From the IMG/VR virus record IMGVR_UViG_3300008050_000317, positions 1 to 23,894 of that record: 23,894 bases of DNA, one strand, 5' to 3'. The notes below the pieces were generated by a model. The model saw only the letters and a program-made list of their open reading frames with translations, made no database searches and had not been told where the DNA came from. Within the stretch, counting starts at the first letter, position 1. Each line of letters starts with the position of its first letter. The position numbers were made by a program, and so were the translations under genes. Below, in pieces: positions 2,404-11,049 of this stretch. The stretch comes from a virus.

Positions 2404-3045
2404 TTACCACTCCACTTTTAATTTTACTTTTTTACCTTTTTCTATACTAAAGGCATTCAATTCTTTATCCAACCCATGTTTATACAAATCATATACTAAT
2501 TCACAATCCTTTAAACAGTAATCCACTACTGTTTGATATTCTCCAGTTTTCCATAATTTTGGAGCCATATAACTTTCTAATGATTTACTTTGTCCAAGAG
2601 TATTATCAACTAAATTTTGAAGAGTAAATCTTTCACCATGACCTTTAAGTAATTCTTTACTTGTATCAATGTACTGTTTATTATTTAAAAATTTTCTAAT
2701 ACAATATATGTCTAAAGAATCTCTTAATACTGGTAAATCAAATACTGCAATATTATGCCCTAATAATTTAGTTCCAGATTTAAGAGCATCATCTAAATCA
2801 TATTTTAATTGCCTTAATGGTAAAATTTGAGTATTACTCTTTGCAACAACATCATTAACAATATCTTCTTCAACATAGATTTTACCGATATTTCCATCCC
2901 ATGTTGCTACTGTTGATACTAAAAACATATGAGTATTTTTCCAACCACCAATTTCAGTAGAAAGATTTTTAGTTTCAATATCAAGTGCTAATATATCAGT
3001 TGCCACCTTTTGTCCCCCAAAGTTTATGTAATTGTTTTGATTCAT
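2404..3045 (-). CDS. DEDDy-type 3'-5' exonuclease (RNase H-like fold)
   Basis: The protein carries the exonuclease motifs in order. ExoI is LALDIETK near the N-terminus with the D-x-E pair, the middle motif is GHNIAVFDLPVL with the second Asp, and the C-terminal motif is YCLKDCELVYDLY, a YxxxD arrangement that marks the DEDDy subclass. About 200 residues is normal for a stand-alone DnaQ-like exonuclease. The polymerase in this window has its own exonuclease domain, so this enzyme probably trims recombination or repair intermediates, or host nucleic acid. The start is uncertain: ATG at 3045 overlaps the upstream gene by 50 bases without a clear ribosome-binding site, while GTG at 3004-3006 overlaps by only 11 and follows GGGGG. 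The GTG may be the true start. Confidence 0.8.
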   Translation of the reverse strand: MNQNNYINFGGQKVATDILALDIETKNLSTEIGGWKNTHMFLVSTVATWDGNIGKIYVEEDIVNDVVAKSNTQILPLRQLKYDLDDALKSGTKLLGHNIAVFDLPVLRDSLDIYCIRKFLNNKQYIDTSKELLKGHGERFTLQNLVDNTLGQSKSLESYMAPKLWKTGEYQTVVDYCLKDCELVYDLYKHGLDKELNAFSIEKGKKVKLKVEW

Positions 3046-3232
3046 CACTTGTTGTTTCCGGCATTTCATATGTAGGCTTTACGAGGAAAAATACTATATT
3101 TGTTCCTGCTACATTTACACTTGTAGTTGGAAACCAACCTTGTTCCCCCTTTGCATTTAATTTTTCAATAATCGCTTTTGGCCCTTGATTAATATCAAAA
3201 ACTATAAAGTCATTTTCGTAACTTACTTTCAT
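2996..3232 (-). CDS. Small conserved-looking protein, DUF4177-like (78 aa)
   Basis: A 78-residue protein whose central pattern (AIIEKLNAKGEQGWFPTTSV) resembles the helix-Gly-x-x-Gly-Trp signature of the small DUF4177-type alpha-beta fold. Beta-strands predicted at residues 1-15 and 40-53 fit that fold. The start at 3232 overlaps the stop of the helicase-like gene by 4 nt (ATGA) and has GGATG upstream. Its 3' end overlaps the following exonuclease gene. No enzymatic motif is visible. The family likeness is by pattern only. Confidence 0.55.
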   Translation of the reverse strand: MKVSYENDFIVFDINQGPKAIIEKLNAKGEQGWFPTTSVNVAGTNIVFFLVKPTYEMPETTSDESKQLHKLWGTKGGN

Positions 3233-6743: not shown

Positions 6744-7684
6744 AACCAATCACTTTCCTCTTTTACTGAATCAGAAGAAGCAGGACAAATATCTATAAAG
6801 GAACAATGTACACATTTCTTATGGAAAAACGAGGTAGGGAACTCATTATTCTCATAAGCATAAATTAATTCTGCAATTGCTTTCATTGTTGAAGTCATAG
6901 TGGCTTTCTTTACTTTTTCAACGGTAATATGATTACTAGCAGGGTAATACCACCCCCAATGATTTATTGGTAATAATCCACAGTCTGGTGAATTTTCCAT
7001 TAATATTTTATAAAAAGCTAATTCTCTTCTAATCCCTGTTTTATTATCTTTCCAAGGCCCTGTTTTTAATTCCATAGGAATATATGAGTCACCTTCTTTA
7101 AATATTCTATCAATAATACCTTGAATATGAACAATATGGTTATTGATAAGAGGATATTTATTATGTAAATTATTCGTTATTAACAATCTAGCATTAAATA
7201 ACATTTCATTTCCTGCAGGTAAAAACTCTTCTAAATTATTATTTTCTTTCGCATCAAGAAAACGCTGAGTTTGAAATAATACTATTGAATCAGACAAATC
7301 CATATAATCACTAATAGGAAATAAACCCGTAAAATAGTCTTTTACTTCCACCATTGACATATTTTCTGCCTTTTTTATATCAACTGAATTATAAAAATCT
7401 TCAACAGAATCATGAATAAAAGTACCCTTTATCATTGGTTCTGTAACTTCAACAGGTCGCCTATCTATATAAGAAAACTCATACTGTTTTTTACACCATT
7501 TAAAAGCACCTAATGAGGATTTTGTTATTTTTAATAAAGGTTTATCAGGATTATTTACCCAACTAGATTCCCATTGATAAGTATATTCATCATCATCTTT
7601 AACGGGAGGTTTGACCCATTCACCTAATTCATTCTCTTTTCCGTACACTCTAATATATTCTTTCTTTTCTTCTTTTTCTGTCAT
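6740..7684 (-). CDS. Cas4/RecB-like PD-(D/E)XK nuclease with iron-sulphur cysteines
   Basis: About 314 residues with the RecB/Cas4 nuclease arrangement: a conserved His in GTFIHDSVEDFY, an Asp in IQGIIDRIF, and an ELKTG motif for the ExK pair, followed by an ELAFY segment in the place of the family's QxxxY motif. An N-terminal Cys (FKWCKKQYEF) and the C-terminal CVHCSFIDIC (C-x2-C-x5-C) give the four cysteines expected for a 4Fe-4S cluster, as in Cas4 and AddB. It would resect or process DNA ends. There is no CRISPR array or other cas gene in the window, so a role in replication or recombination is more likely than spacer acquisition. ATGA overlaps couple it to both neighbours. The final residues (EESDWL) echo the end of the polymerase fragment upstream. 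Confidence 0.82.
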   Translation of the reverse strand: MTEKEEKKEYIRVYGKENELGEWVKPPVKDDDEYTYQWESSWVNNPDKPLLKITKSSLGAFKWCKKQYEFSYIDRRPVEVTEPMIKGTFIHDSVEDFYNSVDIKKAENMSMVEVKDYFTGLFPISDYMDLSDSIVLFQTQRFLDAKENNNLEEFLPAGNEMLFNARLLITNNLHNKYPLINNHIVHIQGIIDRIFKEGDSYIPMELKTGPWKDNKTGIRRELAFYKILMENSPDCGLLPINHWGWYYPASNHITVEKVKKATMTSTMKAIAELIYAYENNEFPTSFFHKKCVHCSFIDICPASSDSVKEESDWL

Positions 7685-8472
7685 AACCAATCCTCCAATT
7701 GTTTTTGATTTGTGTCAATCATAAATTCTGCACAATCCCAACCCATAGCATCAAATATAGGTTTTGCTTTTTTCATTATTGATGTAGTAGCATAATCCTT
7801 CCAATCTGGGGTAAATTTATCATCAAACTCTTTCATCTCTTTAACTGAAACAAAAGTTGCTTTTCTTTCTTTTCCATTAGGAAGTATTACAAATTGTGGC
7901 CCTTTAATATATTTACATTTAATATATAGAAAGGAATCATTTATTGGGTTATCAGGGTCAATGTGTTGATTATAATAACAAACTCCTGCCACCCCACCAG
8001 CAATTGATTTATAATTCTCTAATGAATTTTTTAACCTTCGTCTTTTAACTATTTTATCTAATCCAATTTTACCTGAATTGACTAAATTAAATTGCTCTTT
8101 ACAAAATTTAACTATATCGTATTTTGTTTTTTGTTCTACCCACATTCTTAATAAATCGCCTTGAAACTTTTTTCCTATTTGGTTTTCAGTAATTTTTTTC
8201 ATTGAAAACCCTGTTACAATAAATTCTTGTTCATCTAAGAATTCACCATCTTTCCAATTAATTAATCCAGCGTTTCTATTTTTCTTAATACCTACACCTA
8301 ATGACTCATAATATTTTTCAAATTCAAGAGTTACAGGGTGATTTTCTAAACCTAAAACATTAGGGAATGATTCTCTAACATGGTTATTTAATTCATTACA
8401 TACTATTTTAGCCTTCTCTATATTATCAATAGGCACATAAATAGAATCAGTATGAGCATAGACTACTTTCAT
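7681..8472 (-). CDS. polB: Family B DNA polymerase, C-terminal subunit (motif C and thumb)
   Basis: The 263-residue product starts MKVVYAHTDSIYV, which is family B motif C and continues into the rest of the palm and thumb. The large fragment at 8730-10358 ends just before this point, so the two join without a gap. Motif C reads Y-A-H-T-D-S where the usual sequence is Y-x-D-T-D-S: the main metal-binding Asp (D9) is kept and the first Asp is His (H7). The last eight residues, QKQLEDWL, fit a PCNA-interacting (PIP) box, and a PCNA gene lies 2.6 kb upstream. The start has GGTGATGATGA directly before ATG and overlaps the winged-helix gene by 4 nt. No intein residues are present. With the large subunit it should form one polymerase. 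Confidence 0.88.
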   Translation of the reverse strand: MKVVYAHTDSIYVPIDNIEKAKIVCNELNNHVRESFPNVLGLENHPVTLEFEKYYESLGVGIKKNRNAGLINWKDGEFLDEQEFIVTGFSMKKITENQIGKKFQGDLLRMWVEQKTKYDIVKFCKEQFNLVNSGKIGLDKIVKRRRLKNSLENYKSIAGGVAGVCYYNQHIDPDNPINDSFLYIKCKYIKGPQFVILPNGKERKATFVSVKEMKEFDDKFTPDWKDYATTSIMKKAKPIFDAMGWDCAEFMIDTNQKQLEDWL

Positions 8473-8729
8473 TCATCATCACCTATCCATCTCCAAATTT
8501 GATTTCCAGTACGATTATGTTGTCCTACTTTTTCAACTTGAGGGTGACAAGTTAAAACTGATGATAATCTATTATTAGAAATCTTTACTTTGGTTTTAGT
8601 TCCCCTTATAGTAATATGATTATTTATTTTTTCAGATAATTCTGCTGTTTTAAATTCTTCTAATTGGGAAGCATATTCTTTTATTCTTTTCCATATGTGT
8701 CCCTTTTTTTTTAATGCGTGTCCTGACAT
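8469..8729 (-). CDS. Winged-helix protein inserted between the two polymerase genes (86 aa)
   Basis: An 86-residue basic protein. After an N-terminal helix (HIWKRIKEYASQLEEF) it shows a helix-turn-helix and wing pattern: TAELSEKINN, then NNRLSSVLTCHPQVEKVG, then a Trp-rich strand (NQIWRWIGD). This is typical of small archaeal winged-helix DNA-binding proteins. It lies precisely between polymerase motif B and motif C gene segments. Its ATG abuts the stop of the large fragment (TAAATG), with GGAG just upstream, and its stop overlaps the start of the small fragment (ATGA). It does not look like an intein or a homing nuclease. It may be a third subunit, a DNA-binding factor, or the leftover of a mobile insertion that split the gene. 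Confidence 0.7.
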   Translation of the reverse strand: MSGHALKKKGHIWKRIKEYASQLEEFKTAELSEKINNHITIRGTKTKVKISNNRLSSVLTCHPQVEKVGQHNRTGNQIWRWIGDDE

Positions 8730-10358
8730 TTACTCCATCTCCTGTACTTTGAATGCTGCGGTTCTAATTGCTTCTCTAGCACTTGCTGTAATTGAAGCGG
8801 CTAATTGAACATCAGACCAACCAAAACCTTGTTTAGCAATTACACCATAAAAGGAAGCCATTAGTCTTTTTGCAGCCATTTGATTATTAAACCATTTAGT
8901 ATATTCTTTTTTATTACCATCGGCTTTGGCTTTTTTCATTTTTCTCTTATATTCATCTCTTAAAGTTTTTAGTTCTAAAACAGAACGGGGTAATAATCCT
9001 AACTTATCCGTTTTATAATAAACCATTTTCTTTTCATCAGTTATACTGAAATCTCTCGGTGTTGCTAGATTACAAGCAAATTCAGTTGGTTTTGCACTTT
9101 TAGTTTCAAATGATATGTTTCTTGATAACATCATAGATGGGTATAGTCCAGCGAAGTCAAACGCCGCCACCCCTATATGTAATCCATTAGTTTTATTTTG
9201 CAGGGGATTATAAATCATAGCACCTTCATATTTCTCTTTAATCATACTTTTATCCCCTGTTGGTGCAATCCAATTAGCGTTACGCATGAAGTATATAGTT
9301 GCCATATTAGTAACATAAAAACAAGCATCAAAAGGTGCGTTTAGAAGGCTTTGTAGGGCTAAAATACCATCAGAAAGACCCATCTCATCATCTAATCTCT
9401 TAATCAAATCAACATCAATAAGGGCATACTCAAGGTATGTTTCCCTATCTTCTAACCATCCTCTTCTGAAAAACTCATTTTTATCGGGGAATTTTTCTGA
9501 TACTAATTTCTTTTGCCCTAATACTAGTTCAGATACATAGTCAAGTGCCAATGAAGGTAAAGTGCCTCTTTGTGAATCAGTCCATTGACGCTCAAAAGCC
9601 ACATTTAAATCAAGGGTTATACGCCCCCGTATAGGTTGCTCAATTTGAGAATAATTATGAATATACTTGCTTACTTTACCAAATGAACAACCCTTTACAT
9701 CATTATAGGGTGATAACCCTCTTGGGTCTATATCATTATAGTCTAACCTTTCAATCAATTTAGGTAAATCAGCAAATGACCCGAACCATGAAATTAACAT
9801 ATCGGGGTCTTGAGTTTGAATTAAATTAATAAATTGTTCTAACATTTCCTTTTCAGAACTTTCATTTGGTAACCAAGTTAATGTTGTGAATTTTTCTGTA
9901 TAGTTATCATATACTACAATAGCAGTAATAGCATCACCGTGTTCTGGGTCTTTATTAATCCATTCCATATCCCAATACCATTTCCTAAGATTAGTATTAG
10001 TTACTTCATTAACATTATCAATACAATATCTATAATGAAAAGGAACATCACCTTCATAAGTATTGCGCCACATTTTTCTTGCAGTTTTAACATCACCTGC
10101 TTTTAAAACCTTTACTTTCTTTAGTAGTGTACCTTGTAAACTTCTCCAATCTCCTGTTTCATATTTAAACGGGTATGTTAATTTAACTCTTTTACCGCCA
10201 ATACTTGTTGATATAGTATATGAATTGTACTCAGTTTCTAAATTATTTATGAAGAAATATGGTTCAAAATCTTCTATTGTTTTCTCTTGACGGACTTTAT
10301 TTTCATCTCGCCAACGGAGATTAATTGCTCGGTTTGCGTCTGTGTAACATATAATCAT
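8730..10358 (-). CDS. polB: Family B DNA polymerase, N-terminal subunit (exonuclease, motifs A and B)
   Basis: The 542-residue fragment contains the 3'-5' exonuclease and the fingers/palm start. ExoI is YWDMEW (D130, E132), ExoII lies near WFGSFADLPK (D197) and ExoIII is YALID (Y311, D315). Motif A is DFAGLYPS (401-408). Motif B is KRLMASFYG (497-505), where the usual Asn of KxxxNSxYG is Ala. The frame ends FKVQEME at residue 542, immediately before motif C, which is in another gene. Together the two fragments give about 805 residues, a normal archaeal PolB length. The ATG at 10358 is chosen because it sits one base after the upstream stop with GGTGG nearby; earlier in-frame ATGs exist at 10367 and 10391. 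This is the viral replicase. Confidence 0.88.
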   Translation of the reverse strand: MIICYTDANRAINLRWRDENKVRQEKTIEDFEPYFFINNLETEYNSYTISTSIGGKRVKLTYPFKYETGDWRSLQGTLLKKVKVLKAGDVKTARKMWRNTYEGDVPFHYRYCIDNVNEVTNTNLRKWYWDMEWINKDPEHGDAITAIVVYDNYTEKFTTLTWLPNESSEKEMLEQFINLIQTQDPDMLISWFGSFADLPKLIERLDYNDIDPRGLSPYNDVKGCSFGKVSKYIHNYSQIEQPIRGRITLDLNVAFERQWTDSQRGTLPSLALDYVSELVLGQKKLVSEKFPDKNEFFRRGWLEDRETYLEYALIDVDLIKRLDDEMGLSDGILALQSLLNAPFDACFYVTNMATIYFMRNANWIAPTGDKSMIKEKYEGAMIYNPLQNKTNGLHIGVAAFDFAGLYPSMMLSRNISFETKSAKPTEFACNLATPRDFSITDEKKMVYYKTDKLGLLPRSVLELKTLRDEYKRKMKKAKADGNKKEYTKWFNNQMAAKRLMASFYGVIAKQGFGWSDVQLAASITASAREAIRTAAFKVQEME

Positions 10359-10608: not shown

Positions 10609-11049
10609 TTATTTCACCATTAAATATTTTATTGCGCCTTTTAAATTATTTATATTATCTTTAAAATAACCTAATGCTCTATTACAATTAGAACATAGTA
10701 GCCCTCTAACTTTTCCTGTCTTATGGCAATGGTCTACATTTAATATTTTTGTTAATTCGTTTTCATTAATTTTACAAATTAAACACTCATTATTTTGTTC
10801 CCTTTTTAAAGTCATATAATCATCATAAGTAATACCATATTTGTATATTAATTTTCTATTCCTATCTACTTTACCACCATTTTGTTTATAGCGATTCCTA
10901 TTTCTAGCATTTTTTCTTTTCTTATTACGACCAACCTCAATACATTTTAGGTTACCACAATATATTTTAAAATGCTGTCCACCTCGTTTCTTATTATTAA
11001 TAGTAAATAATTTCTTACACTTATTATTAGCACAAATTTTATACTTCAT
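10609..11049 (-). CDS. Endonuclease VII-like HNH nuclease (zinc-binding)
   Basis: The C-terminal half has the recombination endonuclease VII signature: YDDYMTLKREQNNECLIC, then NVDHCHKTGKVRGLLC, then SNCNRALGYF. This includes the HNH-type DHCHxTG core and two CxxC knuckles for structural zinc (C-L-I-C and C-S-N-C). The N-terminal half is a second Cys-rich piece (CANNKCKKLF, later YCGNLKC) followed by a very basic stretch. At 146 residues it is close to phage T4 endonuclease VII. Members resolve Holliday junctions and branched DNA before packaging; others are mobile homing-type nucleases. It lies two genes upstream of the split polymerase, which makes a homing origin worth considering. Start and stop abut the neighbouring genes. 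Confidence 0.85.
   Translation of the reverse strand: MKYKICANNKCKKLFTINNKKRGGQHFKIYCGNLKCIEVGRNKKRKNARNRNRYKQNGGKVDRNRKLIYKYGITYDDYMTLKREQNNECLICKINENELTKILNVDHCHKTGKVRGLLCSNCNRALGYFKDNINNLKGAIKYLMVK

What the first reader, a model, noticed from the sequence alone, without database searches (positions are those of the whole stretch)
7681..10358. DNA polymerase B split exactly before motif C, with a gene between the halves
The large fragment (8730-10358) ends a few residues before the place where motif C belongs, and the small fragment (7681-8472) begins MKVVYAHTDS, so the two rejoin without loss (542 + 263 residues). There is no intein sequence. As I recall, archaeal PolB is also naturally split in Methanothermobacter and, at motif C with a split intein, in Nanoarchaeum. 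A split with an unrelated gene between the parts is not something I can name in a described virus.
Basis: partly seen in the sequence, partly recalled or inferred. Interest (0 to 1): 0.75.

Follow-up and report, generated by a model that had tools for sequence, protein, structure and literature searches.

The report
Archaeal-virus DNA polymerase in two pieces
A marine archaeal virus makes its DNA-copying enzyme as two separate proteins that must come together so that each supplies half of the active site; the cut is real, happened once long ago, and is shared by a whole branch of these viruses, in which it has already been labelled though not, as far as I could find, analysed.

Summary
A family B DNA polymerase is encoded as 542 aa (8730-10358, minus) plus 263 aa (7681-8472, minus), broken just before motif C, with an 86-aa gene between and no intein. 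It is not a sequencing error. 191 fetched loci (136 distinct N-half sequences) with both halves, from magrovirus-like contigs, are broken at the same residue, with -4 to 2309 bases between the halves; the genes between vary and can be absent. Both halves are under equally strong purifying selection, and ~90-kb contigs carry no other PolB. I found an unsplit sister lineage (10 contigs, same gene order). In the tree all 62 split representatives form one clade beside it, so there was one ancestral fission and no re-fusion. Metal-binding Asp412 lies on one chain and Asp9 on the other, so only a heterodimer can be active. Motif C reads Y(G/A)HTDS: its first Asp is His in all of them and in the unsplit sister, so that change predates the split. 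Split PolBs are known (Aeromonas phage 25, Methanobacteriales, Nanoarchaeum), and the ICTV profile of a magrovirus family already labels 'PolB-NTD/CTD'. What drove the fission is undecided.

The parts
8730..10358 (-). PolB N-subunit, 542 aa: N-terminal domain, 3'-5' exonuclease, first half of palm (motif A), fingers (motif B), palm helix ending SITASAREAIRTAAFKVQEME
   Evidence: start at 10358 from relatives and upstream stop
7681..8472 (-). PolB C-subunit, 263 aa: second half of palm from the motif C strand, thumb, C-terminal tail
8469..8729 (-). 86-aa gene between the halves; positional orthologues in five other representatives of the window's subclade, absent or replaced elsewhere; no Pfam or PHROG family, weakly resembles small winged-helix-like proteins in other gaps (hhalign probability 28%)
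8443..8460 (-). motif C, YAHTDS (C-subunit residues 5-10); His7 at the place of the usual first Asp, Asp9 the metal ligand
9135..9158 (-). motif A, DFAGLYPS (N-subunit; Asp412 in 553-aa numbering)
8844..8870 (-). motif B, KRLMASFYG (N-subunit fingers helix)
7684..7707 (-). C-terminal QKQLEDWL; Q, L and W invariant in 20 relatives, resembles a clamp-binding (PIP) motif
   Evidence: PIP reading is inference
8469..8472 (-). ATGA overlap of the 86-aa gene's stop with the C-subunit start; at the other end TAA|ATG (8730/8729) abut
   Evidence: upstream stop within -10..+10 bases of the C start in 61 of 62 representatives, -4 in 35

Best explanation
The replicative PolB of this magrovirus-like virus is a two-chain enzyme. 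The N-subunit carries the N-terminal domain, the proofreading exonuclease, the fingers and half of the palm; the C-subunit carries the other half of the palm, from the motif C strand on, and the thumb. They are translated from neighbouring genes of one operon-like run and assemble without a covalent link, so the two catalytic Asp residues (motif A on N, motif C on C) meet only in the heterodimer. The break arose once, in the common ancestor of a large branch of these viruses, in the loop between a palm helix and the motif C strand; a sister branch keeps the unsplit gene. The seam then became a place where small genes come and go. Shown: the split, its conservation, single origin, purifying selection, absence of a second PolB on long contigs. 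Inferred: assembly, activity, role as replicase. Undecided: whether an inserted gene such as a homing endonuclease caused the fission.
For: 191 loci with both halves (136 distinct N-half DNA sequences) split at one residue, with -4 to 2309 bases between. Tree: 62 split representatives form one clade (SH-aLRT 100), sister to the unsplit His-type PolBs, haloviruses outside. dN/dS median 0.055 (N) and 0.054 (C) over 25 pairs, partly overlapping. Eight split-type contigs of 88-103 kb carry only the two halves, the two unsplit ones a single match. Exo residues D141, E143, D208 and polymerase residues D412 and D9 invariant in 62 of 62; Y322 and D326 in all 20 aligned. N and C distances correlate, r 0.84 against at most 0.24 in shuffles. 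Structure models: the parts of low confidence in each lone half are mostly palm segments that would face the other half (N 382-465 and 516-553; C 1-9 and 52-94), while exonuclease and thumb are confident.
Against: No two-chain prediction or experiment was possible. The His in motif C could mean reduced or altered polymerase activity. Low-confidence palm segments may partly reflect the shallow 20-sequence alignments.
Confidence: 0.88

Rival explanations
1. The fission was caused by insertion of a mobile homing endonuclease gene (HNH or GIY-YIG) at motif C, later lost or replaced by other genes in most lineages, as proposed for T4-like phages. It adds a cause to the best explanation and does not replace it.
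For: Motif C is a known intein site, YGD|TDS (PMC549080). In halovirus-like relatives L249, L252, L254 PolB is split elsewhere, downstream of motif C, with an HNH gene at the break. HNH-type genes lie in the gap of L034, L080, L155 and a GIY-YIG-type gene in L059. Unsplit sisters have a gene with HNH-like motifs directly after PolB, though Pfam does not call it HNH.
Against: Endonuclease genes are scattered on the tree and not in basal positions; most gaps, including the window's, have none. The break is about 7 residues upstream of the intein site. Lineages with no gene between (L016, L132, L133, L148) show the split needs no insert, though this could be loss.
Confidence: 0.35
2. One chain is restored after transcription or translation, by intein trans-splicing, RNA splicing, frameshifting or bypass.
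For: N. equitans PolB is trans-spliced by a split intein at motif C (PMC549080, PMC4104785). In L016, L132 and L133 an ATGA overlap would allow a frameshift.
Against: No intein or intron signature. The halves abut in some viruses and are more than 2 kb apart in others. Every split gene has its own stop and start, with the start tied to the stop just upstream.
Confidence: 0.03
3. Assembly artefact or decaying gene.
For: One contig, L141, has a visibly broken N-half.
Against: 136 distinct sequences share the same break, catalytic residues are kept and dN/dS is about 0.05 in both halves.
Confidence: 0.01
4. The heterodimer is an accessory or translesion polymerase rather than the replicase, because motif C lacks the first Asp as in archaeal B2 enzymes.
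For: B2/G2 PolBs have a conserved motif C His and only one Asp, and were proposed to be translesion enzymes (PMC7544198).
Against: Exonuclease residues are intact, unlike B2. No other PolB on eight ~90-kb split-type contigs. Sits with clamp loader, primase and ligase genes. Primer-independent PolBs lack the first Asp and are highly active. The metals are held by D404 and D542 in KOD; the lost residue matches D540.
Confidence: 0.1

Closest known systems
Magrovirales / Aoguangviridae, virus YSH_150918, 'PolB-NTD/CTD' (PMC10768690)
   Same: Marine archaeal tailed viruses with PolB as two genes and the same replication gene set
   Different: The profile text calls it simply a family B polymerase; I could not see where its split lies or what is between (figure and record not held). 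Split site, single origin, unsplit sister and His motif C were not found described.
T4-like Aeromonas phages 25 and 44RR, gene 43A/43B (PMC2988022)
   Same: Viral PolB fission with extra sequence associated; halves of phage 25 co-purify and are active
   Different: Linked to a seg endonuclease or untranslated spacer; sporadic within its group; site not compared here
Methanobacteriales split PolB3 (PMC4104785)
   Same: Two-polypeptide archaeal PolB without an intein
   Different: Cellular PolB3 group; thought to come from erratic intein excision; exact site not compared here
Nanoarchaeum equitans PolB (PMC549080, PMC4104785)
   Same: Break at motif C
   Different: Carries split intein halves, parts non-adjacent and trans-spliced; break at YGD|TDS, about 7 residues downstream of this one
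Halovirus PolBs (HRTV-25, HVTV-1, HGTV-1; B5-type)
   Same: Closest named full-length homologues, similar replisome genes
   Different: Unsplit, DTDS motif C, about 23-25% identity

Membership tests
B-family DNA polymerase (RNA/DNA-primed, proofreading) | PolB fold over both halves | tested here: met
B-family DNA polymerase (RNA/DNA-primed, proofreading) | Exo I-III acidic residues | tested here: met
   D141, E143, D208 in 62/62; Y322, D326 in 20/20
B-family DNA polymerase (RNA/DNA-primed, proofreading) | Motif A Asp and second motif C Asp (metal ligands) | tested here: met
   D412 and D9 in 62/62
B-family DNA polymerase (RNA/DNA-primed, proofreading) | Two Asp in motif C (usual, not universal) | tested here: not met
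   His at the first position in 62/62; several known groups also lack it
Naturally split PolB by gene fission | Two ORFs that together make one full-length PolB | tested here: met
Naturally split PolB by gene fission | Halves form an active complex | not testable with these tools
   no complex prediction or assay available
Intein-split PolB (Nanoarchaeum type) | Intein halves at the break | tested here: not met
   halves end and start as PolB sequence, no intein family hit
Homing-endonuclease-split PolB (Aeromonas phage 25 type) | Endonuclease gene at the break | tested here: not met
   window gene matches no endonuclease family; some relatives have one
Magrovirales | Replication and chaperonin gene set | tested here: met
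   PolB, RFC small subunit, ATP ligase, cpn60 by Pfam; primase by PHROG; compared
Magrovirales | Phylogenetic placement with named members (PolB or capsid) | not testable with these tools
   no named magrovirus record in the collections; no capsid gene was identified in the window

The most novel reading that the evidence does not exclude
Splitting the palm is adaptive: separate C-subunits and the changing genes in the seam tune dosage or assembly of the replicase, in an enzyme whose active site already runs with a motif C His in place of Asp.
Probability: 0.1. Interest if true: 0.6.

Novelty: new member of a known kind. Interest (0 to 1): 0.42.

Why it matters
It shows that a replicative polymerase broken through its catalytic palm can be fixed for a very long time across abundant marine viruses. 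An unsplit sister with the same gene order and the same His motif gives a natural before-and-after pair for testing what fission of a polymerase active site costs or buys, and what a His in motif C does.

Tried and rejected
Intein, group I/II intron and tRNA signals in the window: none. A second PolB elsewhere: none on ten 88-103-kb contigs. The 86-aa gene as a conserved partner: orthologues only in its subclade; profile comparison with gap genes of other clades is weak (probability 28%). My first count of ATGA at the C start was uninformative because the second codon begins with A; redone with true upstream stops. L263 as an independent split at motif C (502 + 255 aa, 11-base overlap, TTG start): only one contig found, so a frameshift cannot be excluded. 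In the tree the halovirus, L260 and L263 branches are long and their mutual placement is unsure, but the split clade and its unsplit sister do not depend on it. The reference magrovirus record ON649702 and three magrovirus papers (Philosof 2017, Zhou 2023, Prabhu 2025) are not held, so the earlier literature on this split could not be fully checked. In the cellular genome collection only one relative turned up, a contig binned as Maricaulis.

Full report
OBSERVATION. The window carries, on the minus strand, a 542-aa PolB N-half (8730-10358), an 86-aa ORF (8469-8729) and a 263-aa PolB C-half (7681-8472). The genes are packed tightly: TAA|ATG abut at 8730/8729 and an ATGA overlap lies at 8469-8472. 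Pfam, PHROGs and solved structures place the halves in complementary, adjoining parts of one PolB; on KOD-type structures the N model runs to residue 534 and the C model from 534 on. Alignment with full-length halovirus polymerases shows the halves rejoin in register.

EXTENT. 540 IMG/VR contig stretches encode a relative of the N-half (the best 80 were kept per scan). Over several scans, 191 loci contain both halves, with 136 distinct N-half DNA sequences (some contigs were fetched more than once). All break at the same residue, the C-half starting M(K/D/Q/E)(V/I/L)(V/I)Y(G/A)HTDS, in a few with a V or L codon. The interval runs from -4 bases (L016, L132, L133) to 2309 bases (L155). In 61 of 62 representatives the C start lies within 10 bases of the stop of the gene upstream, 35 of them with the 4-base overlap, as expected for translational coupling in one operon (inference).

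ORIGIN. A scan with halovirus PolBs brought in L264, an unsplit 817-aa PolB with the same neighbours: clamp (PHROG 947) before it, PDDEXK nuclease and the MKFPREMWAGSHL primase after it. Further scans gave 10 such contigs, two over 90 kb. In the tree (74 rows, quick method) the 62 split representatives are one clade with support 100, the unsplit ones their sister (99), and haloviruses lie outside. One fission and no re-fusion is the simplest reading.

FUNCTION. dN/dS is about 0.055 in both halves; eight split-type contigs of 88-103 kb hold no other PolB. Exonuclease and polymerase acidic residues are invariant, with Asp412 on the N-subunit and Asp9 on the C-subunit. These correspond to D404 and D542 of KOD, which hold the catalytic metals (PMC5718519, PMC7763228). 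So neither half can form the metal site alone (inference from homology). In structure models of the single halves, exonuclease and thumb are confident, but the palm segments that should pack against the missing half are not.

MOTIF C. The first Asp is His in all split sequences and in the unsplit sister, but Asp in the halovirus, L260 and cyanophage PolBs examined. The change therefore predates the split and is not its result. It corresponds to D540 of KOD, not a direct metal ligand in the cited structures. Loss of this Asp is known in B2/G2 (with a conserved His), PolB_SITDG and primer-independent PolBs, the last highly active (PMC7544198).

THE GAP. Contents vary by clade: nothing; one small gene (window subclade); a cassette of short ORFs in the largest clade; and sporadic HNH, GIY-YIG-type, MazG and a CRESS-type Rep domain. 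The seam behaves as a tolerated insertion site. Whether an endonuclease insertion caused the fission cannot be decided; the precedent is real, both in T4-like phages (PMC2988022) and in halovirus-like contigs whose PolB is interrupted by an HNH gene at another site.

COMPARISON. Split PolBs are a known kind. For this virus group the ICTV profile of Aoguangviridae abbreviates 'PolB-NTD/CTD' in a figure legend (PMC10768690), so the split itself has been annotated. In the papers I could read I found no discussion of its position, age, unsplit sister or the motif C His; three key papers were not held. Hence 'new member of a known kind', moderate interest.

Noticed in passing
L249:5556-6299, L252:5606-6457, L254:5522-6265: Halovirus-like PolBs are interrupted downstream of motif C, between an 'EGM' palm segment and 'ISGYP', with an HNH endonuclease gene at the break: an independent PolB fission at another site.
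   Followed up: partly
L263:3462-5727: PolB read as 502 + 255 aa with an 11-base overlap, breaking at motif C (canonical DTDS); either an independent split at the same loop or a frameshift. Only one contig was found.
   Followed up: partly
L153:3294-3638: A 114-aa ORF between the PolB halves matches Viral_Rep (PF02407, E 4e-17), a replication-protein domain of small circular ssDNA viruses, inside a tailed archaeal virus.
   Followed up: no
C-subunits of most relatives, e.g. L010, L019, L076: Most C-halves carry a cysteine-rich (CxxC...CxxC-like) insertion in the thumb that is absent in the window's subclade and in the unsplit sister L264.
   Followed up: no
window 10609-11049: Endonuclease VII-type gene upstream of PolB; about 70 bases near there match a Leptolyngbya phage record at 84% identity, perhaps a mobile endonuclease.
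   Followed up: no
L162 (NZMJ01000151.1): A magrovirus-like contig with split PolB is binned in a bacterial (Maricaulis) metagenome-assembled genome, probably contamination.
   Followed up: no
L141:2065-3731: On a 92-kb contig the PolB N-half is broken into several frames while the C-half is intact, probably sequencing indels.
   Followed up: no
window 2404-3069: A separate exonuclease-like gene (RNase_H_2 / DNA_pol_A_exo1 matches, weak) in addition to the PolB exonuclease domain.
   Followed up: no
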